Made by a program: the position numbers and the translations under genes. A stretch of 64,000 nt of DNA from Apostichopus japonicus (Eukaryota > Echinodermata > Holothuroidea > Aspidochirotida > Stichopodidae), in assembly GCF_037975245.1 (NCBI RefSeq), contig NC_092580.1, positions 24,073,001 to 24,137,000 on the forward strand. The letters are read 5' to 3'. Position 1 is the first letter of the stretch. The number at the start of each line of letters is the position of its first letter. The notes under the pieces are model-generated. The model saw only the letters and a list, made by a program, of their open reading frames with translations. It was not told the origin of the DNA and did no database searches. This document shows, one piece after another, positions 33,809-63,818 of this stretch.

Positions 33809-36800
33809 TCATTCCTTTCCAGAAATTCTCAAAGGACAAGACTTGCTCACATGGTCGTCTAGGTAGTCCTTTCGATGAAATGACCGTAAACAAAATTGGC
33901 ACTGGTAGGGCTTTTCTCCCAAGTGAGCGAGTTCGTGCCTCTTCAGGCTGTGTGTGGCACTGAATAATTTACCACAGAAACAACACACAAATACTGGCTT
34001 CTCTTTCTTTACTAGGTGACTTGCTTCGTGGGCTTCAAGAAATCTTGGCACCTGATATTTCTTACCACAGAGCTTACACGTGAGGTTCAATTTTGGCTTT
34101 TCATGATTGCTCTTTTCATGGCTATTTCTTTCTCCAGTTACTCTGAAGCGTTTATCGCAGTAATTACACTGAAAGGGCTTTTCTCCGGTATGAATTCTCT
34201 CGTGCTTTTTGCGATCACCTCCCTCTCTGAACGCTCTGCCACAAAAGTTGCACTTGTATGGTTTTTCGCCGGTGTGGATCCTATTGTGCCTTCTGAGTGC
34301 ACTCATGCTTTCATGGGAACTCCCACAAATTTCGCAAGTAGGTCTCTCTTTGACATTCTTGACTGGAGGATTGATGTGGTAACGTTGTTCGTGTCGCCTG
34401 TGAAGCATAGCATTGATGAATGCCTTACCGCAGTACATGCATTTGTGGGGGCTCTCTCCTGTGTGGCTCCAAACATGCTCTTTCAGGTCCCTAGCTGTCG
34501 AATATATCTTAGAGCAGTGAGTACACTTAAACGGTCTCTCTTTTGTGCGACTCTTGACGTGGCCAGTTGAGAGTGATGGAAATGAAAAACCAAAGCCTAC
34601 TTGACAAATATTACAATTATATCTACTGCTGCCATGCTTCGTCTTGAAGTGTTCGTTGCATTTACTCATCGTTAGAAACGTTATCCCGCAATGATGACAA
34701 AGGAATGGTAAACCTCTCTGATGTAGTCTCTTGTGAGTTTCCAAAGCCGAATTAGACCTGAAAGCTTTGCTACAATGGTCACAATGGAAATTATTTCCAT
34801 ATAACTGGTGAGACTTCTCATGAGTTTCCCACTCCACACAGGATGTGTAAACCTCTTCGCAAAATTGACACCTGTATGACATTTCACCCACGTGAATCTT
34901 TTCGTGTATCTTGTGTGCAGCTTTCGACGAAAATCTCACCCCACAGTGCTTGCATGGGTGTGGCTTGCCGAGTCTATGATACCTGTGATGCATATTTCTC
35001 TCTCCTCTGGAATGGAACTTTCTACTGCAAAATTTACACTGATACATATCGTCAGGCAGGTGGGTGCTTCTGTGTTCTAAACAGGAAACTGCGTCCCTGA
35101 AACTGAGATTACAAAACTCGCAATTCCATGCAATCTTATTTTTATGAGCCTTCAAATGTTTTTCAAGGCAGTCCTCGGATTTGAAAACTTTATCGCAGTA
35201 TATACATTTCTGCCTGACAGATCCATTTGGCACAGAGCTAAGAACGACATCTGTACACTTGTGCTGCTGGAACTTTCCCCTGATCTTGTAAACCGTGTGA
35301 CATCGTTGACATTCGTGGAATTTCTCAGCATGAGCCAGCTCGTGATTCCTGCGATCAACATGTCTGCTGAATCGCTTGTTGCATATCTTACAAGGGAAAG
35401 GTTTCATTGAGTGAATTCGGGCATGCAATCTCCGTCCCGCACACGTGTCGAATGACTTTTTGCAGTGCTTGCAGGGGTAAAGCTTTTCTTGTTTGGGGCT
35501 TGCTTCATGTTTAAGAAGCAGAGACGGAGAAGATGCAGTCGTTGAATGGTTTCTGCAAGGGTCGTACCTCTTACTACTACTTCCCATCGTCTGATCATTG
35601 GTTTCCACATCATTAAACAAGTCACTCACTGCTTTTGCACTTTCTATTACAAAGGAGACAAAAAATAAGGTAATGACACTAGCATGCTGCTCATTGTCAT
35701 GTGCAAAAGGGGAGGGGCAGGGGGCCTGGCCCCCACCTCTACAATCAGTCTGGGGTAAAAACTAGCAGTTGGAGAATTTATTTCACATTCAAAAGTATTA
35801 TTTATTAGCAAAACCCTGTGTTAGACCTAATTCATAGTCTAAATATGCCTCAGAATGCACCAAACTAATCTTTTAAATTTTTCTAGGCAAGTACCCCTGC
35901 ATGGGATTGGCATTCAACCACCCCACTCCAAACCATTTCTTCCAAAAAAACATTTTCAGCCTACAGTGTACTCCTAATTTTGACCTGTACTGACTTTGGA
36001 ACTGATTATAATGTTATAGACATTTTTTTTTGGTATGTCAGGAAGCAACATATTAAACATGGACAAAATAAACTTTGTCACTTTTACTTCATCAGATATC
36101 GCACCTAAAAACATTACATTTTCTGAGTTTAACCTCTGTCAATTAGGTGTCATTGTTAAACCTCAGATATTGTGTCCAAAACCTGCCTTAACATGCATGC
36201 ACATTCATTGTTACATACATTCTCACTTGCACACTTGATTGCAAAAGTTACTAGCCTTCTTATTTAAGGCTAGTAAACCAAAGCAATACTCTGGCACCTT
36301 ACATATATATTTATATATATTGTTATAGTTTATACTAGTTTTGATGTACCTGCATGATTGTCTGAGAATGTCTCTTCGGGCATTTTCATTTCTCCTCCTT
36401 TCCTTCCCCCACCTTCATCTGCATCTGATTTTGTATTAGTGATATCTTCCATGCTTATATCCTCAATCACTTTCTCTGGACTACCATCGCAGGATTCCAC
36501 TTCTATCTGCAAAGTGACCAAGGGTGCAATATCCGGGGGCCAAGCTCCATGATTCACTGAATGATTCTGTGACACAAATATGAAAGATGTACATGTATAT
36601 GCAAAATTAGGAAAAGACACTAAACTACGGTATCAACCAGAAATAAAGTAGAGTAGAGAATTACATGTAGGCTAACGCATGGTCCAAAACTTTCCTAATT
36701 TTATATACAAACAGTAGTCCACACTACAAACCTCGATTGATGATTGCTTAGACAAGAAGTTTATCTCCCCCCCCCCCCCCCAGAAAGAACATGTACAGCA

Positions 36801-39174
36801 TTTTATAAACTACTGTAATGTAGGCCTATCAGGGATTACAACCAGAATGATACATTAAGTTTATTTTGAGTTAAAATGTACCTCCCCCGCCACCCCCACA
36901 TTATTTACAGCATTTTAGCAACTGTGTAGACATATAGGGGATCACAACCAGTGAATTGTTATTTCACAATTTGAAAAGTCTACATAATTTTAAGCTTAAG
37001 TGCCCAACCCCCCCCCCCTAACGTCCCCTCAACAATTCCCTTTTTGTTTAAAATGACTGAATAATCCTACTATTTCACACCAGATCCTATTAATAAACCT
37101 ACTCTAGGTAATTTGTTTGTGGCAATGACAAAACAGACAATCTAAAAGGAATTGGAGGCCACATTTGACACATAGGAGCACATTGAAGGATTTCTGGTTT
37201 GCAAGACTTTGTTCAAAATACTCATATTATTTATGCAGCATTTGCTTAGTTATCACATTTAAAATTTAGTTACTGTATGAGAAACAAAATTAATAACATT
37301 ATCACATACGCGAGCAGAGACCTCAACCTCAAAGGCAATTGTTTCATCGAAAACAATCGCAGAATCAACATAAGAATGTAGCATCAAAAACACATGCACC
37401 CCAATTTAAAGGAAGGTTTGCCATGTTAAAAGCTATTGTAATTTATTAAACACACATCCTGTAATATTGAAAACCATTGCATAATTAATCATAATAATAA
37501 ACAGAGTAAGGCAACTGGACACACATTCAGTATGGAATATAACCCACAACATCAAAAATTATACACACTGGAACATTTGAAAGTTAGAAACATGCATGAC
37601 CATGCAGAGCTATGTATTCTTCATATCATTGAATGGTTTCTGAAAACAGTCAGAGCATTTTGGCAAGTTGTTTTTTCTTTCACTTTCGTTTCATCCTCAC
37701 AATTACCTGTTCCTGTGTTTGAGATTTCAGCTCTTTTGGCTTGTTTTTTGGTACTTTTAAACATTCCCGGCACTTTTGACATTTCTTGATAAAATTATCC
37801 ACATCCTTCCAAATGCCCTTCCAAAAGTACAAGGATGTTAGCTTGTGAACTGTCTTGTCTCTCCCCAAATGACTGTCTGAAATACAACACAGAAGATACA
37901 AGTGTTACAATTAGTGTAAGTATATGCCTACAGCTCTGTCTAAGTATGTACAGGTCTCTAAAAAAGTGCACAATTGTACCTAATTTTTCCAGGTTCAGAG
38001 TTTTTGTTTTAAGGATTGGCCAACTGAAATCATCAATGCTGACAGTGGTGCTGACACATAATTCCTGCATTCAGCTGATATATCCAATTTCATTGATACT
38101 GTCCTCTCCTAATCATTCTTCCAAGCAATCATACTGACAGTATGAGCAGCTCCTAAGCATTATTTGATAGCAACAGGATATTCATACTGTTCATACTGTC
38201 CGCACAATTGCTTCACAGCATGACATGAAAGTAAAATTTGCACAAAAAATTAAAAATGCTGGCTGCAATATGTTACTTCAAAATGTACTGTATATTCATG
38301 ATATGTGTCGTGATAAATGAATATTGATGTTTGTCAAGCACTTATCAGTCATAATGTAATTCCATGGTAACCAATTACATTAAAAAATTATGATTCAAAC
38401 ACTGAAATATTATCATGTAGAGTATAGTTATTATTGTATGCTATGCATGTCATTGTATTAGATGTTAAGCAATATTATGTAACCTGCACTTGCACTGCTG
38501 TGATGATGAACAGAATACAGTCAGTGGAGCACAGATCTTCAAACTGTGTACTTTCATTGCTTGTCCTTCCATCTCTCACTTCTCTACAACATCAAGCAGC
38601 AACCAACATCAACCTTCGGTGTGGGATTAGCACCAAAGGATCGCGTACTAAATCGACAGTCCGATAAAAAGTAAGAATGTTTCATAATTGAACCGATGTG
38701 TGGGTAAAGAAGCTCCAGATCAACGCTTATTGATGATAGGGTGAATAGTTCCACCATTTCCCTATTCGGCCGGCAGACATGAATAATGAGGGCACGTCTT
38801 ATTCGTCCGTTCGCCGGGAGAATAACATAACGCAGCGCTAACTTTTGATTCGCGAAATTGATACCACTATTCCAGGTATGTTATACCAGGGAGTTGTTAT
38901 GGAAGTCCTCTACGTAAACTAAAGTATAGGTTATTATGTAGTTAAGCTACTGACCTGTACTTTCGTGCACCAGCCGTGTAAGACGGAACCGTTCCTCTGA
39001 ATTGCTGACCACTCTCGTTCCTTTTACAGTCATAAGGAAGCCATCATTGTTAATAGTAAAGCTCTCGCTTCTCTTTCGAATACTTCTTTTCTCGTTTTTA
39101 GTCGATTTCGCTGGGTAACTGCTGTATTTAAGGAACTCGAGAACATTTTTCATGTCAGTTTCGAACTTATCCAT
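33809..39174 (-). CDS. Integrase H2C2-domain / poly-C2H2 zinc-finger fusion protein (813 aa)
   Basis: Exons in transcript order: 39174-38955, 37876-37707, 36566-36350, 35643-33809. Junction phases are 1/1, 0/0 and 1/1 and all splice sites are AG/GT. The ATG at 39174 has G at -3 and +4. Residues 1-120 resemble the N-terminal H2C2 zinc-binding part of gypsy/Ginger integrases: H70, H76, C106, C109 in an H-x5-H-x29-C-x2-C pattern, with the hallmark HLGRDKT and YFWKGIWKDV strings. Exon 3 is acidic (ESCDGSPEKVIEDISMEDI). The last exon encodes about 19 finger units from residue 258: some 16 canonical C2H2, two that end HxnC (third and last), and one lacking a ligand (YNCNICQVGF unit). Linkers of the TGEKP type occur in the C-terminal half. 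Predicted nuclear DNA-binding factor, target unknown. No integrase catalytic core is encoded. I do not recognise a named orthologue. Confidence 0.85.
37707..39174 (-). other. Two-exon integrase H2C2 zinc-binding module at the N-terminus of the zinc-finger gene
   Basis: Exons 39174-38955 and 37876-37707 (intron 38954-37877). The intron splits the module between the two His ligands: H70 is in the first exon; H76, C106 and C109 are in the second. The region before H70 (KNEKRSIRKRSESFTINND) matches the basic strand that precedes the HHCC domain in gypsy and Ginger integrases and in the domesticated gene GIN1. There is no DDE core, reverse transcriptase or long terminal repeat nearby, so it is a captured domain rather than a retroelement copy. 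Confidence 0.8.
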
Positions 39175-42187: not shown

Positions 42188-45100
42188 TCAAGTACCTTTT
42201 GAAGGGCAAGACTTGCTTTCATGCTCATCACAATAATCTTTCCTAATGAAATGTTTTTGGCAATACTGACATTGAAAGGGTCTATCTCCAGTGTGATTTC
42301 GCTCATGACGATGGAGAGAGTGCATTGTTGTGTAACTCTTCCCACAGAAGTGACAGACGCATGATGGCTTCACCTTGACGTTCTCGTGCTTTTTCTCGTG
42401 CAAGTCGCGGTAACTTTCAATCTGATACTCCTTGCCGCAATGTTTACACGGGTACATAGACTTCTGCTTCTCGTGGCGGGTCCGCTGGTGGTTGTTGCGA
42501 GTCCCCGTCCTGGCAAATGATTTATCGCAATATTTGCAAGGATACGGTTTTTCCCCGGTGTGAGTCCTCTCATGCTTTTTTCGGTCCGTTCGATTGGAAA
42601 AGGCTTTTTCACAAAATTCACATTTAAACGGTTTCACACCAGCGGCTAACCTCTTTTCATGTTTGGTGAAACCCAACGGATTATTTGACACCGATTTGCA
42701 GACAGAGCAACCCTTTCCAGGTTGGCACACTTTATGGTTTCTTGTTTCATGAGGTCTCCTGGAATTTGACGTGAGAAAGCCCATCTCGCACTCTGAGTGT
42801 CGACACGGATACGGATATACCCCCGTGTGTATCCAAGTGTGTTTATTAAGATAACGTCTGTAGAGAAACTGTTTCTCACAAAACTGACATTTGAAAGGTT
42901 TCTCACCTGTATGGATCCTTATGTGGGTCTTCAAACCAGACTTATACAACAGAATCTTTCCACAGATATGACACACGTTCGTCTCCTCGTGGATCATTTT
43001 AATGTGGTCTTTGCAAGTGTCTTCGGACCTGAATGATTTACCACAGGTATGACAAAGGTATGGCTTCTCTCCAGTGTGTACTCGTTCATGAGTGACCAAC
43101 TTTCTCTCCCACTGGAAAGCCTTACCGCAATAGCAGCACAGGAAACGTTTCCCTTGCTTGTGCATTCGTTCGTGACTTTGCCAGTACAGTCGAGAGTGGA
43201 ACATTTTATCACAGACACCACACTTGAAGGGTTTTTCACCAGAGTGGACATTCTCATGGCTTTCACACGCTTGCTTGGATGCAAATCTCACTCCGCAGTT
43301 CTTGCATATATGCTTCTTCATGACGCTGACACGGTGCCATCCCTCGTGCCTTCTCCTAACAGCTTTGGTAGGGAATCCTTTGCTACATACCTTACACTGG
43401 AATACGTCATTTTTCAATTGGTGATTGTAGGTATGTTTCTGCCATACCTCTAAATCCTCAAATCTCTCATTACAATATTCGCAATGCCACTCTGTCTGAC
43501 TTTCGTGGACTTTCTGGTGCTTTTCAAGGCTTTTAGCAGACATGATATTTTTGATATTACAGTAACGGCATTTAAGAGGACTCTTGCTATATTTTCTGTC
43601 TTCGTTAACTTTGCATCCATCTACACATTTGTGATACTCAAACCACGTCTTTGCCTTGAACTCTCGATTGCATTTGTCACATTTATAACGTTCTCTCAGG
43701 TGAACCTGCTTGTGTCTTCTGTGAGATCTCTTTGAGTTAAACCTCCGGTCGCACACCTGGCAGACGTATGGCCTTTCTTTAGTGTGAGTAAGTTCATGCT
43801 CTTTCAGATGCGTAGAGGCCAGAAATCCCTTTCCACAGAATTGGCATAAGTGTGGCCGCTCTCGTGAATGGGTAAGCAAGTGCTTTCTCCATGCTGAATC
43901 CTTCTCAAAACTTGCCTTGCAATGCTTACATTGCCTTTGAGTCTTCACAGGTTTGCACACATGTGTTTTTAATGATAACCGATACTTATATAGTCGACTG
44001 CAGACTCCACATTTGAAGCGTTCCTCTGAATGAGTCTGTTTGTGCCTCCTATGCGCTCTCTTTGAGTTCAATCTCTTCCCGCAGGTTTCGCATGCATAGG
44101 GACGCTCCTTTGTATGAACCAGTTCGTGTTCTTTACGATTGACACTGCTATCAAATGCCTTCCCACAATACTGACAGAGGTGCTTGTGATCCTTTGAATG
44201 GCCCCTTATATGACTTTTCAAACCACAGGTGTTCTTCAATATCTTGTCACAGAGTTGACATTGATATGCATGTCTCTGTGGCGTTCTTCTGTCCACTTTT
44301 TGCTTACAGCGACTTTGCGATGCAGCTTCCAGAGTCCAATCACCGTCAGATTCATTGGATTTTGCTTCTGTATAAGAGACCAAAAGAGCAGCTAGATTAC
44401 AGGCATCATAGATATTTTTATGTACCAGGCTGTTGTATAAGGAAGGATTACCTTCTTTTTAGTAGATCCCCTCAAAAAGTAGACCACTTAAGTCCATGTT
44501 TTAAGCCATTTTGGACCTCAGCTGTGCCTTAAACTGTTCTTCTCTTACAGTTGTATCAAATTCAAGCTATTGATAAGCAGACTGGCACAGCAAACCAATT
44601 AAAACGATGTCTTCAATTTATCCCCAACACCATCCCCTTACAACTTCCACGTGGTCCTACTACTGTACCTAACTACTCAATGGAATCCCTTCGGTGCATA
44701 TCCCCACTGGCTATTTTCATACTTTTAACCTAATGACCCGTTCACTTTACTGACTCAATTTACTTACCTACACCCACTTATTATATAAGACTGCAAGGAA
44801 ACGAGTTTGTAAGTAGTTTTACCTTCTACTTGCCACGAATAAAATCTGACCTCCACCTAGGAACATAATGAGTTGTTTTCCATGTTATAGTAAAACAAAT
44901 TGTATATGGTACAGCAATTGATAGCAAAATACTAACCAATAATAAATGCAACCAAACTCAGCAAGGGGCATCAAAACACCAGATGCAAAGTTCCTGCAAG
45001 CTGGAGATGGTTTACAAACAACGATTTCCCATTCAAAAGCATGTATATAACACTCACATGCGAGATGTACTTTGTTGTCAACAAAGGAATATTAATTAAA

Positions 45101-45883
45101 AGCAAGGGTGACAGAGAAAGGTTTGCAAGTTGAAACATAATTGATTGCAAATTTTGCACATCACTTTTAAAAGCATCTGAAGATTATCAAAAAGTATCAC
45201 AATATTGAGGTTGGGTGTTACTGTGATTTATAAATCATTTGAGTTATAATTTGCAAAGCATTTTCCATGCTACACTATATTCTCCTAAGTTGGTGTCACT
45301 GGTAAACACTTTGGGTATTTTAGCATACATTACTGTGGGCATTTTCATATTCAGTGTAATACCTCCATCATCAGAGGAAGTTTCCTTCTCATCTGAAAGC
45401 TCTTCTTCCATTGTTCTTTTCTGGTCCTTGACATTCTCATCAAATTGTCCCTCATTGGCTGCATTGTTTTGTTCAAGAACCGCCACTTCCATAAGAAGTG
45501 GAAAGTTAGGGGTTGTGCCTGTCAGGATATAAATAGAACAATTCATAAAAAATCCTGATTTGAAATTATCTAATCTCTAGGTAAATATCCAATTTGGTTG
45601 TACCCTATTCTTCCCGACCCTATCCGACCCCCCCCCCTTACCCACACACATGCAGAACATTTGTTCCATGGAACTGAATATTTTATCTTCAGTTATATGG
45701 CTGAAATTACATATTCATAGCTATAGCCTGATATAGTATAAGGTAGGTCTAGTAGTCTATAGGACTAGCATTTCTAGTAGTAGTAAGTAGTAAGCTAAAG
45801 GAAAATAGGCTAAATCATAAATGACGCCTGTGGTTAGGCCTAAGTTAGCATACATGTATACCTTTGATTTTTTCTGTCTCCAT
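42188..45883 (-). CDS. Poly-C2H2 zinc-finger protein, paralogue of its neighbour (785 aa)
   Basis: Exons in transcript order: 45883-45862 (METEKIK plus a split Gly codon), 45518-45363, 44367-42188; both junctions are phase 1. The ATG has G at -3 and +4. Exon 2 is acidic (SDEKETSSDDG). Exon 3 carries about 24 finger units from residue 94 to the end. Most are canonical C2H2. Units 4, 8 and 24 end in Cys rather than His, unit 18 has C-x4-C spacing (CRHSEC), and unit 19 lacks its second His. The last unit (FQCQYC...ESKSCP) and the order of the final eight units parallel those of the neighbouring gene, so the two are tandem duplicates. No KRAB, SCAN, BTB or ZAD domain and no integrase module is seen. 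Likely a nuclear DNA-binding regulator; target unknown. Confidence 0.88.
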
Positions 45884-46307
45884 TGCGATGACTAAACGAA
45901 GAATTATTTTGAGTGTATTCACAAATGGAAGAGTTGGAGTGTTAGAAAATCATTCTTCGATGAAAAATTAAAACCTCTTTACATGAATGACTGTTTCGTT
46001 GGCTAGATATTTCGTGGAATTGGGCCAGTCAACCCTCTACGCCAGGGGACGGTAACGTATGGTAGGCCGTTTTTGCAATAAATAGTTGTAAGATCCAGGA
46101 GTTGCAATAAATAGAGTTCGTAATATATCCAAGTCCAACTGCATTTATTTTAAAGACAACATAGTGACCTGGCGAGTCTATGGTGTAGGGGATATTCGAG
46201 ATTTAACCCCCTCAAAACTGTGATAATTAAGACCCCTAAATTTCAAATATTTCATCTATAGACAATCCATAACGTCATAGGGAACATCAATTGACTATAG
46301 CTCAAGA

Positions 46308-47710
46308 CAGGGTTGGCATTTTCCCTGGAAAAACCTGTTTTTCCCACTAAGCGGTAAAAACCAGGTAAAAACCGGGAAAAACTGGTAAATACCGGTAAAA
46401 ACCGCCTCCGTCTCGAAAACTAGTATTAATTGTCCGTAAAATGCAGGGTCATCAGTAGGCACGATATTGTTTCATGACAGGCATATTTTATTGACTATGG
46501 GAGTTTCTTAGCTTCATTTTGAGCTATTTTATCACGTTCTTATTCTACTTTTTGTGGAAAAAAGAGTATTTTTCGTATTGCACATGTATAGTTCTGTCAC
46601 GATCTCTTTAGCAGTATGCATTGCCTATTGCCCAAACCATTATAGGTCTACACTGGGACATTCACCCCTCCTAAATTCTTCAGGCCTATTATGTGGCATG
46701 AACAGCGGAGGATAGAACGAAGTGGCGAACCATGGCATCCAAAGCCTCAAAGGGACAAGGAACCATATAATAATATAATATTATGTGCTCAGACAGTTCA
46801 TTCCATTAATACAGTAGGCAACAGTCTATTGAGGTGAACTTCAATCCAGGGGGCTCAATAGAAACTGCTTTGAAACTTTGTAAGGCACATGGGCCCAATT
46901 AAAGTATTAAACGCACAATGGCCCTATGGAGCCATTCACACAACCAAACTGTTTACCTTGATGCAAACATGGTCCAATTATTATACAAATTCATGCATGA
47001 GTGATTACACACTTTGAGGTGGACAGGTGAGGTGATACTGGGCACTTCCTGTGTATAGGCTAACTGAAGAGGTAGGAGTATCAACAACACAAGTAACTGT
47101 TCCAATTGTTACTTATTCTCAAATTAGTTGATGTCACAACAGTCACTTAGTACAGTGCCTATTAGCAATATAAGCATAGTACAGTGCCTAGTGCGAAGTG
47201 TGAACAGAGTACAATTTATCGCAGACATGAAGTGATCGTTCTTGGATGTGAATCATCATTTGGATCTGAGCAGACTAATGTGGCATGTATAATATGACGA
47301 ACCATAGCCCTATAGGAGGCACCAACAGTTTGATACGAGTCCATTCTCTAGATAATGGAATTATGCATCTCGATAGGAAAATAAAGTTGGTTGATTTGAG
47401 CATCCAATATATTATTTATTTGAATTATTTATAATACTGTAGTCTAATCGGTAAACTTACAAGTTATAGATCATAGCTGTTCTTTGGATGTAACCCAACC
47501 CCCTACCATAAGATGCCATTTACTTGTAGATTCTATGCTCCTCCACAAGTTCCACATGAGTTTTTAGGAATTCTATATAATTTGAGGTTTTTCCCGGTTT
47601 TTCCCAGTTTTTCCCACTTATAGGTGGGAAAAACCTCCCGGTAAAAACCGGTAAAAAACTTGTTTTTACCGGGGCGGTAAAAACCGCCCGGTAAAAACCG
47701 GCCAACCCTG
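46308..47710. mobile_element. Non-autonomous hAT-like element, 1403 bp, perfect 8-bp target duplication
   Basis: GCTCAAGA lies at 46300-46307 and 47711-47718. The left end CAGGGTTGGC is exactly mirrored by GCCAACCCTG at the right end. Both ends hold clusters of GGTAAAAACC and GGGAAAAAC in both orientations (about 46330-46405 and 47585-47700), like subterminal transposase-binding repeats. The interior is AT-rich and has no transposase reading frame. Confidence 0.92.
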
Positions 47711-48402: not shown

Positions 48403-49047
48403 CAAGGGCGGTGGAACCGGGGGCACAGGGGGCTTGTGCCCCCCCCCACTTTTCCTCAGGTTAAAAATGTGCCCTTTTTCTACATAAAAATTGAGGTGTC
48501 TCAAGTTAGCAAGAGAACCAGAATGAACACTCGGGAAGGGCCGTTTCCGGCCATCTGAGGGGTTTGTAAAACCAAAAATTATTTTGTACGCTCCGCGCCA
48601 ACCGATGGTGGCGCTCCGCTCAGATAGTCGTGCATACAACTTTGCAAATCCTGTAACGCCCCTGACTTTTAATGAATCTCTGTGGGTCAAATTCAAAGCT
48701 ATTTCGACTGCAGGGAAACTTTGTTTAGATACTTACAAGAAATAAACTCTAATCCGGAAGATTCCTACATTAGCAACTAGCATGATATCACCTCATTTGG
48801 TCTCAAAAGAAAGCTACTTCCTTGTTTCCCAATTTGCACATTGGATATTGCAGTGCTAGCATACAAATGTTCCTTCAGGAGGGGGGGGGGGGGTTGATGG
48901 AGTGATGTGTATACGCAAATAAGATAATACAATAAGAGTTATAAAGGGTGCTAAATATAAGGCTGCATCAGTCGAATCGAATTTCTGCAAAGTGCCCTTT
49001 GATGTCGGTGCCCCCCCCCCAGATTAAAAGTGCTTCCGCCGCCCTTG
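48403..49047. mobile_element. hAT-like MITE, 645 bp, degenerate 8-bp target duplication
   Basis: The left end CAAGGGCGGTGGAA matches the reverse complement of the right end (CAAGGGCGGCGGAA) at 13 of 14 positions. Flanks TCACGGAG (48395-48402) and CTACGGAG (49048-49055) agree at 6 of 8 bases. Both ends carry C/G runs. The stretch around 48535-48610 shares TTCCGGCCATCT and TGTACGCTCCGCGCCAACC-like strings with the element at 62574-62952. Confidence 0.8.
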
Positions 49048-56200: not shown

Positions 56201-59200
56201 AGTTTGGTACCACAAAGTGATGTTTCTTTTTCGTCACTTTACAGTCCTTTTGACTTTACAGTGACATAGTTTTAGCAATGTAAAAGCTGGAAAGACCTAA
56301 AACAGTGAGGGTTGCGTTATTGGATAATATTGGATATTTGATAATGTTATTTTACATTCCACAGTAGGTGCAGTATTACACATTTTGAAATATTTCTCAT
56401 TGAGGTTTGAATGAAGTGCAGTACACAGTACGTGTGTAAGTAATACATTGGTATTATGCTATCTTCTTCAGCTTTGATGGGTATATTTGAGAAGAGGAGA
56501 TGTGCAAATTTTTTTAAGTTCTGTTACGGTTACAACCCAGACGATCCCAAAACCCACAAGGGTGTGACTGAGAAAACAACCATGAAGGAACTCTTCGACA
56601 TGCACAATCTGGATAAGACAACCCAGGACTTTACTGGTCATGCGCTAGCTCTGTACAGAGAAGACAGGTAGGTGAACAGACGGAATTGAAAACAATCAAT
56701 TGTCATGAATGCAAATACCCTATTGTTTTCCTATAGATGTCAAAGGTCATTTGCAGGTAAAAACACATCAAAAGTATGAAAACCTTGTTATCCCACAAAC
56801 TTTCAAAAGTACTGTAAAACGTGAATGACGTTTGTGCTGTAGTGCTAGGATAGCCTAGATGATCCCTTGATGTCAGTAACAGGCGAAACTTAATCATGTA
56901 AAATGTTGCAAGGATTCACCTAGCCTGTAGGCTCTCTGGTTAAAGGAAAGACAGACCTAGTCATCATCTACGACAGAGTTCGGTGTGAAGAACGACTTTC
57001 CCCTACAGCTAAGAATAAACCTTGTTCCATTTGGGAGATATCCTGGTTTAAAGGTCTAGCCAGGAGAGCTGTCATGTTATAAGTCTCTGATGTCATAGTG
57101 TCACTAGGATCTCAAACCTTTTACTTTCTCTTTGCTTTTCTTTTCATATTTTCGAGTTACAATGTCGACAGTGTTGGCACTGAACCCAATGCCATCATTA
57201 GGTCATGTTTTAAAAAGTTCAATATTTTAATTTCAGTATTTCCACGACCCATCTCCATTATACGACTATTTGCAGACCTCGCAGCGAAACCTTTAAACCG
57301 TTACAAAACCGTTTATTTAAAAAACAGCTCTTTAACTTTAAAAAAATACTCTTTAAAACCTTTAAAAACCTATCTTTTTATTTTAAGTTAAAAAAAAATA
57401 TTTTAAAGACTTAGAGTAAATGTATTGTATTCAGTCAGGCTAACCATTGGCCATCAAGTTTTGTGGACAGCTAGGCATGATTCATGCAGTGATACTAAAC
57501 AGACTCACAAACAACAGTTAATGTAAGTCGGGTATTTTAAATGAGGGCCACAGATGATGTAAAAATGGGCAAAGATGGTGAGTATATTACAAATAAACTC
57601 CATTTTGGACCTTTAAAAACCTTTATTTCTCCATTTACAACCTTTAAAAAATACATTATTTTGTTGAAGAGGAGCTGGGAGTCTGCTATTGTAAGAGCGT
57701 ATAACATAAAAGCACATGTGGCTTGGTGATGTCATATTTAGACTTCATCGAGTCTTCAGACTGTGATAGAATATTAAATCTGTGATGTCTCCCCGAAAGC
57801 GGAAAGATATATTTTCTGGGCTGTTACTGCAAGTTTTTCACGACAGTTAATCTCTGTTAACGAGACTATTAATGAAAGTTGGTTCCGTGTCTATTGTAAT
57901 TACGTCCCCATATCAAAATAACTGTCCATGGCGACGGTGTTGTGTGTCGGAAAATGCTTTCGTCAGCCTTCACTTAATAAATTAATAATGAAGTTTGCAG
58001 AGGAGTTATGTCCTTTTATGGAAATCCAATTCTAATGCTCCCGCATGTGAGGATTAATATTTGAAATACTTTGAAAGCACTTAAATTTAACAGTGAGTAT
58101 GAAACCGAAAGTTTAGTATCAAAGAGTGGCATTGTGCATCACTGCAGATCACGCTATCAAGAGTCGCAAATAAGTTGTGAGACATGTTAACACTGACCAC
58201 TAATGAAGTAAATAACTCAAGTTAAAAAAAAGGCATTAAATTAATACATTTTAATAAAATGAGAAAATTAATAAGAACTGCTGATTTTGATCTCAGGTTT
58301 GTTGTTTGTCCAGCTAATTAACAGTATTTAAGATGAGTGTTTTTAGTATAAAATGAAGAAGTTGTTAAATACTCCCCAGAGGTATTGTTTGGTATTTTTA
58401 GAACACCTTTTAAGTTAAAAAGAAATGTACCTATTATAAGGAGAGCATTAGGTCAGTTCCCAGATAAATCACAAAAGCTCTGTGGGAAAATGTACAATTG
58501 TTATGGCCTCAAAGGACTCCTTTACAATGCATTGCAAATTGATCAAGGACAGATGGGTGATGATTGTTATCCAATGGTCCTCCATCGTTATATGAAGTTG
58601 CTAGAATGTGTTTTGGTTGAGCTATTACAGATTGTAAAAAAAATATTAAAGTACACACTTTGACCCCTTACTGAGGTGCTGATGTCATCAACTAAGCATT
58701 AAAGGAGCTTTACAGAAAATAAGTTTTTTCAAATGGGTGAATTATGTTGAAAACTAGATAGATAGAAACATCAGTACTCAATTTTTTTCTTCCTTCTTTG
58801 ACAATTTAGCAAGGCTAAAATTCTGCCTAAAGTTTTCCTTCAGAAACCATCCTGGAAGATGATGTTATACCATTTACATACCTCCAACTTTTGTGTTTGG
58901 TGGTATATGTATATATTTTGGTTGCAGAAATACTTTGGCCACTACAGAGAGATGGAAATTGCAACTCTTGCACTCTGCACTCTATTGTCTTTTTCTTCTG
59001 TTGCCAAACAGTGAAATTAACTAACATTTAGCCAATAAATGGCCTGGATTTTGAGAGCCTGAGACATGCACATTGTTTGGAAAATGTTTTCTATATTGCC
59101 CTCATGTTTTAGCCTTGAATTGGAAGGCTAAGTTTCCAATTTTAACAAGAGTTGTGCTAAATACTTATGAATGTTCTATATATTCATGTTATGACAAACC

Positions 59201-62200: not shown

Positions 62201-63818
62201 TTCGGAAACTTATCAGTTTTTTTGAAGGCATAGGCGTAGGAGCTGGGGGGGCTGCAGCCTCCCCAACCAATTTTTTTTGGTGAAAATTCGGGCAATATGC
62301 TTAGAATTTTTCGGGCACCTACTGGAAGAATAATAATTTGCAATGTGTTTTTCATTTTTTTGGTGAAAATTCGGCAATATGCTGAGAATTATTTGGGCAT
62401 CTACTGAAAGAATAATAATTTGCAATGTGTTTTTCAATATTTTGGTGAAAATTCGGGCAATATGCTGAGAATTTTTTCGGGCACCTACTGCAAGAATAAT
62501 AATTTGCATTTTTTTTCCAATTTTTTTTGGTGAAAATTTTTTGCAATATGCTGAGAATTTTGCATGCACCTACCAGTGGCAGAGCGTCCATACAGTCAAA
62601 GGGGGCGGATGCCCCCCTGACGGACTCAAATGGACTGCTGGCGCCCTTTCAGCTTTTTACCACTTTTTACTTATTCGTGATTATTGACTCAGCTCTTTTA
62701 TTGCGCTCTCAAATACCTATTGACATTTGTCACATTTTGTTGGTGCAATTTTCTGACAAATGGCGATGACACCTATTTATTCTTCGTTTATCTGCAAATT
62801 AGCAAGGCCCGGAAAGGGTCATTTCCGGCGATCTAGGGAGTAACTTTACTCAAAAAATTTCTGTACGCTCCGCGCCAACCTGTGCGCCCCTACTGTACAG
62901 ACCATTCTCTCCCCCCGCCCCCCCCGACCAATACCCCCTAGCTCTGCCACTGGCACCTAGTGAAAGATGAAGAATTTGCAATGTGTTTTTCAATGGTTAA
63001 ACTTATATTATTATTATTATCATTATTGTTGTAACAACTTCCCCAATAATTCTAACCAATATGGAAAGGTAATAACACGGAAAATGATTTTATGTTATTG
63101 GCAGGTGATGTAATAACTGATGGATGCCTATATGATATTTTTGGTTATATTTTTCGGGCAAGTCGTTACAGCCCCCCCAAATCAAATGAGGCTCCTACGC
63201 CAATGCTCGAAGGGGATGATGAAGCCCAAGACCTAAGACCCAAGAAGAAATATAAAATAAATATTGTGCAATTCCCCATCTTGACAGCTTCTTGTGTTGC
63301 TCAGATATAAAGTTGTTCTGAAATGGAATGGTTTAATGGATTTGTTACAGTTCCAAATCCTTGATTTTAAAGAAAAGCAACAGCTGTTATTGCTCCAGTC
63401 TGTGAATTGACATTGAAATTATGGAACTGTACTGTCATCTAAATAAAATGAATATAATCTACAAATATTCTAGATATAAACTGCTTTGAAGCTGGGAGTT
63501 TTGGTCGATGTGTTTCATTCCACAAGCTCTTTCTATATATTGGTAAATTTCAGACTTCCCGTTCTGTCATATTTCTGTTGATGTAGTTTGCTACAAACGT
63601 TGACTTAGTATTAGCCTGCCCCCTTAAATTTTTTATGCTGGAGATATATCTAATGTTCTCTTTCTTGTTCCCCCCAGATTTTCATTTCTTCTTCCTTTGA
63701 TGCAACCACTCACTTTGAGACAACTTGTGACGACATCGTGTCCATGTACAAGAGGATCACAGGAACGGACTTTGACTTCAGTAAGATGAAGTCGACGGTT
63801 GATTCCGTGGAAGGTTAA
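50275..63818 (+). CDS. GDI: Rab GDP-dissociation inhibitor (complete, 441 aa)
   Basis: Exons: 50275-50319, 53240-53347, 53706-53799, 54467-54601, 56472-56667, 59388-59519, 61196-61470, 62000-62199, 63678-63818 (stop TAA 63816-63818). Phases agree throughout and the length is close to human GDI1/GDI2 (about 445 aa). GDI extracts GDP-bound, prenylated Rab proteins from membranes and keeps them soluble in the cytosol. The N-terminal dinucleotide-fold-like start [14 protein letters not shown] is conserved. The Rab-binding platform is intact: D34-R35-N36, Y38-Y39-G40-G41, then E230, R237, T245 and M247 in the [19 protein letters not shown] segment. The C-terminus ([15 protein letters not shown]) differs from the vertebrate tail. 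Exon 3 ends in G followed by GCAAGT, so intron 3 is read as GC-AG. One gene stands for both vertebrate GDI1 and GDI2. Confidence 0.96.
51239..52656. repeat. Two clusters of TGCGTCC hairpin motifs in GDI intron 1
   Basis: 51239-51300 has three TGCGTCCC strings, one in GCGTCCCATGGACGC. 52575-52656 has four more, including GCGTCCGCTGGACGC and GCGTCCCGGACGC. The clusters could be subterminal repeats of one 1.4-kb element, but no clear inverted ends or target duplication were found. A related hairpin, TTGCATCCCGTGGATGCAA, lies at about 55679-55697. Confidence 0.45.
59936..60026. repeat. Short tandem repeat of AAGGATCAAC units
   Basis: CTTTAAGGATCAACT recurs five times at irregular 16-27 bp spacing in GDI intron 6, next to the Penelope-like fragment. 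It may be the repeat tail of that element. Confidence 0.6.
60035..60660 (-). mobile_element. Decayed Penelope-like retroelement 3' fragment with GIY-YIG endonuclease motif
   Basis: On the minus strand at about 60255-60170 the frame reads [20 protein letters not shown], the signature start of the GIY-YIG endonuclease with CxxC-type cysteines found at the end of Penelope-like element proteins. The continuation, typical of this domain (HK...RLNKT, HFN), appears only after shifting frame near 60180, so the copy is broken. Sequence up to about 60660 on the same strand is compatible with the upstream part but carries stops. The reverse-transcriptase part is not seen. It lies antisense inside GDI intron 6. 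Confidence 0.6.
62270..62999. repeat. 83-bp tandem repeat, four copies, fourth split by a transposon
   Basis: The units begin TTTTGGTGAAAATTCGGGCA and contain ATATGCTGAGAATTTT, GGGCACCTACTG and AATTTGCAATGTGTTTTTCA. GGTGAAAATT marks lie at 62279, 62362, 62444 and 62529 (82-85 bp apart). The fourth unit runs to 62573, is interrupted by the element at 62574-62952, and resumes with GCACCTAGTGAAAG to about 62999. Confidence 0.9.
62574..62952. mobile_element. Inner hAT-like MITE, 379 bp, nested insertion
   Basis: CAGTGGCAGAGC at the left is exactly mirrored by GCTCTGCCACTG at the right. Flanks GCACCTAC (62566-62573) and GCACCTAG (62953-62960) agree at 7 of 8 bases and derive from the GGGCACCTACTG segment of the surrounding tandem repeat. 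The interior shares strings (TTTCCGGCGATCT, GTACGCTCCGCGCCAACC) with the element at 48403-49047. Confidence 0.92.

What the first reader, a model, noticed from the sequence alone, without database searches (positions are those of the whole stretch)
33809..39174. Captured retroelement integrase zinc-binding domain spliced onto a C2H2 zinc-finger protein
Seen: two exons encode an H-x5-H-x29-C-x2-C module (H70, H76, C106, C109) with HLGRDKT and YFWKGIWKDV, followed in matching splice phase by an acidic exon and a 19-unit zinc-finger exon. Known: this module is the N-terminal domain of gypsy/Ginger integrases and occurs in domesticated genes such as GIN1 and KRBA2. Inferred: a host zinc-finger gene acquired the domain, perhaps for multimerisation or for recognising related elements. 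An intron now lies between the two His ligands, which suggests old domestication rather than a fresh insertion.
Basis: partly seen in the sequence, partly recalled or inferred. Interest (0 to 1): 0.85.

Follow-up and report, generated by a model that had tools for sequence, protein, structure and literature searches.

The report
Transposase-derived domain on zinc-finger gene
In what looks like a sea-cucumber genome, the first two coding exons of a jumping gene's integrase appear to have become the front end of a many-fingered DNA-binding protein; a similar arrangement is known in the vertebrate gene ZBTB11, and no transcript has yet been seen that proves the join.

Summary
Four exons (39174-38955, 37876-37707, 36566-36350, 35643-33809, minus strand) join with GT-AG sites in matching phase into 813 residues. 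Residues 59-111 match Pfam Integrase_H2C2 at E=7e-14. Seventeen finger units fit a pattern (16 C2H2, one C2HC); two degenerate units make 19.

The interpretation changes in two ways. First, the best source is an intron-bearing, multi-copy element of the same genome with the protein signature of a Ginger1 DNA transposon (YPYY, H2C2, DDE, GPY/F), not a gypsy retroelement. Second, that element has a phase-1 intron at the same codon between the two His ligands and a phase-0 donor after the next exon. The window gene thus holds the first two exons of a Ginger1-type gene with both boundaries kept; the intron was inherited and does not show age. Divergence (36-37% identity with an open frame) does.

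Vertebrate ZBTB11 has a similar layout plus BTB. Missing BTB and the finger array give no support for orthology, so I favour independent capture by one of two tandem finger genes. The splice from exon 2 to exon 3 is inferred; no RNA was available.

The parts
38955..39174 (-). coding exon 1: start ATG (G at -3 and +4), YPYY-like block (residues 11-50), first His ligand H70; ends phase 1
   Evidence: 47.5% identity over residues 11-50 to exon 1 of the C17 Ginger1-like copy, 45% in the C12 and C9 copies
37877..38954 (-). intron 1, phase 1, between the two His ligands; same codon position and phase as predicted in the Ginger1-like copies
37707..37876 (-). coding exon 2: second His H76 and C106/C109; ends phase 0 like exon 2 of the element
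36567..37706 (-). intron 2; no significant match to the element's DDE or GPY/F stretches
   Evidence: tblastn of element pieces against the whole window, best E 0.12 and 0.36, neither in this intron
36350..36566 (-). coding exon 3, acidic, no Pfam match; phase 0 in, phase 1 out, so it is needed to keep the frame between exon 2 and exon 4
33809..35643 (-). coding exon 4: finger array, 17 units by pattern (16 C2H2, last one C2HC) plus 2 degenerate by eye; stop codon ends at 33809
42188..45883 (-). neighbouring tandem paralogue (predicted exons 45883-45862, 45518-45363, 44367-42188; 785 residues, 22 finger units by pattern); no H2C2 match

Best explanation
The locus is a host gene for a C2H2 zinc-finger DNA-binding protein. 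Its 5' end is the first two coding exons of a Ginger1-type cut-and-paste transposase, kept with their original exon boundaries. Proposed history: a Ginger1-type copy lay upstream of one of two tandem finger genes; its second exon, which ends in phase 0, was spliced to a phase-0 acceptor of the finger gene; the catalytic exons were lost. Proposed action: the fingers choose DNA sites, and the zinc-bound N-terminal module serves as a self-association or partner-binding surface, most likely for repression, by analogy with ZBTB11. Shown here: exon frames and phases, domain, element relatives, shared predicted intron, tandem paralogue without the domain. Inferred: the splice from exon 2 to exon 3, expression, self-association, repression.
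For: Exon join and phases. Integrase_H2C2 E=7e-14. The loci found to match both exons in order are element copies on C17, C12 and C9. They carry a YPYY-like block, H2C2, two stretches of the DDE core (VGVDMIGPL; SDQGGEF with NGLDERFN; residue roles recalled) and GPY/F in L015 and L017 (L014, where the C17 copy would have it, was not searched for it). They are 94-97% identical over kilobases, introns included; their left end gave 40 matches, all 40 that were scored of 81 candidates. Intron 1 has the same codon and phase, and the exon-2 donor is phase 0 in both. No later element exon matched in the window. 129 aligned codons: aa identity 36-37%, nt identity 48-49%; mutating the element at random sites to the same nt difference gives mean aa identity 19-21% (maximum 30-32%) and an open frame in 8, 15 and 9 of 4000 runs. 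The closest relative of the finger tail is the next gene (52%; 150 of 1061 candidates scored), which has no H2C2 match. [quoted passage not shown] Zbtb11 forms a complex with itself (PMC11290676, passages).
Against: No transcript; the element's splice sites are predictions too. The constraint seen may have acted in the element's own lineage before capture. Exon 3's acceptor has no clear counterpart in the paralogue, whose acidic exon is phase 1 in, phase 1 out. In Zbtb11, deletion of the N terminus, and likewise of the fingers, still allowed rescue, so the module's role even there is not simple; its self-association could rest on BTB, absent here. The exon 2 to exon 3 phase match alone has a one-in-three chance. 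The fourth YPYY aromatic is not in the aligned column (T49).
Confidence: 0.66

Rival explanations
1. Exons 1-2 are a leftover of an old Ginger1-type copy, or a small separate gene, beside the finger gene; they are not spliced to it.
For: No RNA. Copies are common in this genome, many matching only exon 1 (150 of 777 candidates scored). Exon 3 has no homology that ties it to exon 2.
Against: Frame, all four ligands and canonical splice sites survive at about 63% protein divergence; a simple neutral model keeps the frame in under 0.4% of runs. Phases fit through to the finger exon.
Confidence: 0.2
2. The gene is the echinoderm orthologue of ZBTB11 (old deuterostome fusion) that lost, or never had, the BTB domain.
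For: Same order (YPYY-like block, HHCC at residues 70-109 against 79-119, acidic stretch, finger array). With a ZBTB11 N terminus typed from recall, window exon 2 is the best match outside seven frames of 527-1361 residues (E=9.5e-5, row 8 of 47). The N-terminal tree leaves window, ZBTB11 and Ginger1 unresolved (support 38 and 0.51).
Against: No BTB in the predicted protein. Recalled ZBTB11 fingers match many other places better; the two window genes first appear at rows 44 and 54 of 116. None of 5 matches to the recalled BTB lies on C20. The window N terminus is closer to the element (75.9 bits) than to ZBTB11 (50.8), and ZBTB11 is closer to the element (56.2) than to the window.
Confidence: 0.11
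3. The domain came from a gypsy LTR integrase.
For: Integrase_H2C2 is common in this genome, and most of the best of the 150 scored matches (1237 candidates) lie in long uninterrupted frames. Single-exon scores overlap: 39.7-45.4 bits for six other loci against 45.4-50.4 for exon 2 of four split loci.
Against: The split loci add 35.8-38.1 bits from exon 1 in three cases and share the intron; the tree places the window outside the gypsy-like ORFs.
Confidence: 0.03

Closest known systems
ZBTB11 (vertebrates; HHCC + BTB + 12 C2H2 fingers)
   Same: N-terminal integrase-like HHCC module (HX6H X29 CX2C there; HX5H X29 CX2C here), then a finger array
   Different: no BTB here, 17 units by pattern or 19, finger arrays not specifically related, N terminus closer to Ginger1-like copies of its own genome
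Gin-1/Gin-2 and Imagin (domesticated Ginger1 genes)
   Same: Ginger1 origin, retained H2C2, introns traced to the element (passages of PMC2836005, PMC3424704, PMC12863088)
   Different: Gin genes and decapod Imagin keep an integrase core (amphipod Imagin lost it); the passages seen mention no finger array
Host-transposase fusion transcription factors (Cosby et al. 2021, recalled; cited in passages of PMC12062965)
   Same: transposase part joined to a host regulatory gene
   Different: here the transposon part is the 5' end and supplies H2C2, while the host part supplies the DNA-binding fingers
Ginger1 DNA transposon, as found in this genome
   Same: YPYY-like block, H2C2, intron 1 position and phase, phase-0 end of exon 2
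   Different: no DDE or GPY/F match in the window

Membership tests
Integrase zinc-binding domain (Pfam Integrase_H2C2) | profile score above the curated cut-off and HX3-7H X23-32 CX2C ligands | tested here: met
   52.1 bits against 25.5; H70, H76, C106, C109; spacing rule from passages of PMC5384227
Ginger1 lineage (source of the N terminus) | YPYY motif just upstream of H2C2 | tested here: inconclusive
   Residues 11-50 align with exon 1 of the element at 45-47.5%; Y20-P21 and F39 are present, the fourth aromatic is T49 in the aligned column; the motif figure was not seen
Ginger1 lineage (source of the N terminus) | intron position and phase shared with the Ginger1-type genes of this genome (predicted sites) | tested here: met
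   three long copies; the acceptor falls at the same place in L018, L019 and L020
Ginger1 transposon (the window gene itself) | DDE core and GPY/F motif | tested here: not met
   no significant match in the window; a derivative, not a transposon. In one search the DNA of the C17 locus, ends included, matched the window only at three short stretches far from the gene
Ginger1 transposon (relatives on C17, C12, C9) | YPYY, H2C2, DDE and GPY/F with introns | tested here: met
   GPY/F seen in L015 and L017 only, L014 not searched for it
Ginger1 transposon (relatives on C17, C12, C9) | terminal inverted repeats, TGTNR ends, CCGG/CCGT target duplication | tested here: inconclusive
   left end TGTGG fits TGTNR; the four bases before it are CCGG in 2 of 9 copies looked at, other 4-mers in 7 of 9; right end and inverted repeat not found
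Ginger1 transposon (relatives on C17, C12, C9) | C-terminal OTU or Ulp1 protease domain | not tested
   no search was made
C2H2 zinc-finger proteins | tandem C2H2 units over Pfam cut-off | tested here: met
ZBTB11 orthologue | BTB domain between HHCC and fingers | tested here: not met
   no BTB match in the 813-residue product
ZBTB11 orthologue | finger array most similar to ZBTB11 fingers | tested here: not met
   rows 44 and 54 of 116, with a sequence typed from recall
Expressed host-transposase fusion gene | a transcript joining transposon and host exons | not testable with these tools

The most novel reading that the evidence does not exclude
A finger gene took over the first exons, and perhaps the promoter, of a Ginger1 transposon, giving a protein whose integrase-type N terminus can join the transposase multimer of Ginger1 copies that moved fairly recently in the same genome and silence or poison them, while its fingers hold it at chosen DNA sites: a self-made, dominant-negative guard against its own source.
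Probability: 0.08. Interest if true: 0.8.

Novelty: new variant of a known kind. Interest (0 to 1): 0.48.

Why it matters
If transcripts confirm the join, this is a second, apparently independent case in which the zinc-binding N terminus of an integrase sits at the head of a C2H2 array, after vertebrate ZBTB11. Repeated selection of the same pairing would suggest that the module is useful to transcription factors in itself. The case also suggests how such a fusion can form with no new splice site on the transposon side: an intron-bearing transposon brings ready exons with fixed phases. It also warns that an intron inside a transposon-derived domain does not prove age.

Tried and rejected
Rejected: gypsy origin. 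Rejected: intron as a sign of age. Judged unsupported: ZBTB11 orthology, by BTB and fingers; the N terminus alone cannot decide.

Led nowhere: in viral contigs 20 stretches matched a peptide pattern but none encodes a relative. The right end and inverted repeat of the element were not found. A blastn of the regions upstream of the two finger genes found no shared promoter or first exon (best E 0.027). In 6 of 6 other split-intron loci fetched, no open stretch held a unit of a strict C2H2 pattern within 10-20 kb, so no second fusion of this kind was found; only 150 of 580 candidates were scored, so others are not excluded. No structure was predicted because the spliced protein is not a letter-for-letter translation of the window, which the tool requires. 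One of the pieces used (the first) probably lies in an element intron; the first DDE stretch proper was tested.

The first attempt at the exon limits was one base off at several limits and gave stops; one search has the right limits.
Full report
WHERE IT IS. The window is G000:C20:24073001-24137000 in an assembly of 671,581,487 bases and 35 contigs. Total size and largest contig seen (C16, 46,036,110 bases) are very close to the published Apostichopus japonicus assembly (671.6 Mb, 34 scaffolds, 23 chromosomes of 18.21-46.02 Mb; passages of PMC10344927). I infer a sea cucumber; no call names the species.

THE OBSERVATION. Exons 39174-38955, 37876-37707, 36566-36350 and 35643-33809 on the minus strand have GT-AG borders and matching phases and give 813 residues without a stop. 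Pfam Integrase_H2C2 matches residues 59-111 at E=7.4e-14; the other three families over the threshold for the whole protein are C2H2 models; zf-H2C2 (PF09337) falls just short of its cut-off with residues 1-130. The best solved relatives are foamy-virus integrases, E=1.2e-4 over residues 50-110.

SOURCE OF THE DOMAIN. The genome was searched with residues 1-130 (150 of 580 candidates scored). Apart from the window itself, the best matches fall into two kinds: frames of hundreds to over a thousand residues, which I call gypsy-like without having classified them, and short frames that begin just before the second His. By score for one exon the two kinds are close (38.4 and 37.9 bits for the best of each; 45.4-50.4 against 39.7-45.4). 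Six of the second kind were fetched. Three, on C17, C12 and C9, are copies of one element, 94-97% identical over kilobases with their introns. Each has a first exon related to residues 11-50 of the window protein, besides the second exon, then two stretches of the DDE core; GPY/F was found in the C12 and C9 copies, and the part of the C17 locus where it would lie was not searched for it. YPYY, H2C2, DDE and GPY/F together are the protein signature of Ginger1 transposases, some of which have one to four introns (passages of PMC2836005). The left end starts TGTGG, as the TGTNR pattern of Ginger ends asks, and gave 40 matches, all that were scored of 81 candidates. The four bases before it are CCGG in 2 of 9 copies looked at. 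The right end and inverted repeat were not found, so the transposon class rests on the protein.

THE SHARED INTRON. In the element the first exon ends in G and the second begins GT GGT CAC (completing Gly, then Gly-His); in the window the first ends in G and the second begins AC AGT CAT (completing Asp, then Ser-His). Both are phase 1, with one codon between the split codon and the second His. The acceptor falls at the same place in L018, L019 and the more distant L020. The second exon ends in phase 0 in both window and element. All these sites are predictions from sequence. The intron is therefore best read as a property of the source. Published work says that three introns of one Hydra Ginger1 are kept in Gin-1 and Gin-2; I did not see that figure and cannot say that this is one of them. 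The Imagin paper draws a similar lesson for its own gene.

AGE AND CONSTRAINT. Over 129 aligned codons the window and three element copies agree at 36-37% of residues and 48-49% of bases, with differences by codon position of 62-67, 53 and 81-83. When the element is mutated at random sites to the same difference, residues agree at 19-21% on average and never above 32%, and the frame stays open in 8, 15 and 9 of 4000 runs. The model is simple: no indels and uniform change. It says that the sequence was under coding constraint for much of the time since the two parted, but not whether the constraint lay in a transposon or in the host gene. No significant DDE or GPY/F match was found in the window.

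THE HOST GENE. The finger tail has one close relative, the next gene in the window (52% over 84 residues; next best 45% at E=4e-12; 150 of 1061 candidates scored). That neighbour has a predicted short first exon, an acidic exon and a finger exon, 785 residues, and no H2C2 match; no further H2C2 or YPYY exon was found in the window. The simplest history is a tandem pair of finger genes of which one gained the Ginger1 exons. Exon 3 converts phase 0 to phase 1 and is needed for the frame to reach the fingers.

CLOSEST KNOWN CASE. ZBTB11 of vertebrates has an integrase-like HHCC module, a BTB domain and 12 fingers; [quoted passage not shown] Xenopus Zbtb11 forms a complex with itself (passages of PMC11290676). 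A survey reports 828 BTB plus integrase-zinc-binding proteins, 808 of them in chordates (passages of PMC12062965). In a tree of 10 short sequences, window, Ginger1-like copies and ZBTB11 part from five gypsy-like ORFs with support 96 and 0.97, but their order is unresolved (38 and 0.51). ZBTB11's fingers and BTB find no orthologue at the window locus; I did not look for HHCC beside the five BTB matches. I therefore treat the two as alike in build and probably separate in origin, and give the opposite view 0.11.

WHAT IT PROBABLY DOES. Fingers bind DNA; the N-terminal zinc module probably binds itself or a partner and helps repression. This rests on the ZBTB11 parallel and on the role of this module in integrase multimers; none of it is shown here. 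A bolder reading, that the protein interferes with the Ginger1 transposase of its own genome, is not excluded: copies of 94-97% identity suggest fairly recent movement.

NOVELTY. Searches listed no paper whose title or abstract start reports a Ginger1-C2H2 fusion or one in an echinoderm. I saw only the top rows (20 of 177, 15 of 24,644, 12 of 2,041, 10 of 23, 3 of 3 and 10 of 86), and passages of eight papers, no whole text; subscription journals are largely missing. New variant of a known kind.

Noticed in passing
G000:C17:21014425, C12:11101394, C9:19181815 and 37 more scored left ends: A multi-copy, intron-bearing Ginger1-like element family: three long copies, and many places that match only exon 1, a good part of them with one in-frame TAG.
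   Followed up: partly
L020 4795-9407 (C4): A second, divergent Ginger1-like family (46-51% to the first) with the same acceptor before the second His; its core stretch carries a stop.
   Followed up: partly
window 42188-45883, minus strand: Tandem finger gene with 22 finger units by pattern and a predicted 22-base first coding exon.
   Followed up: partly
window about 46300-47710: A block between the two finger genes is bounded by GGTTTTTACCGG-type repeats at both ends; perhaps a small transposon. Read by eye.
   Followed up: no
window 48533-48628, 56723-56783, 62797-62878: Short stretches at 73-79% identity to sequence in the right part of the C17 Ginger1-like locus; probably a common interspersed repeat.
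   Followed up: no
G000:C17 about 1.38-1.77 Mb and C1 about 19.77-19.94 Mb: Clusters of many C2H2 finger matches.
   Followed up: no
L033 1-214 against L031 3016-3230: Sequence outside the left end of one element copy matches the inside of another in reverse, so copies may be nested or inverted pairs.
   Followed up: no
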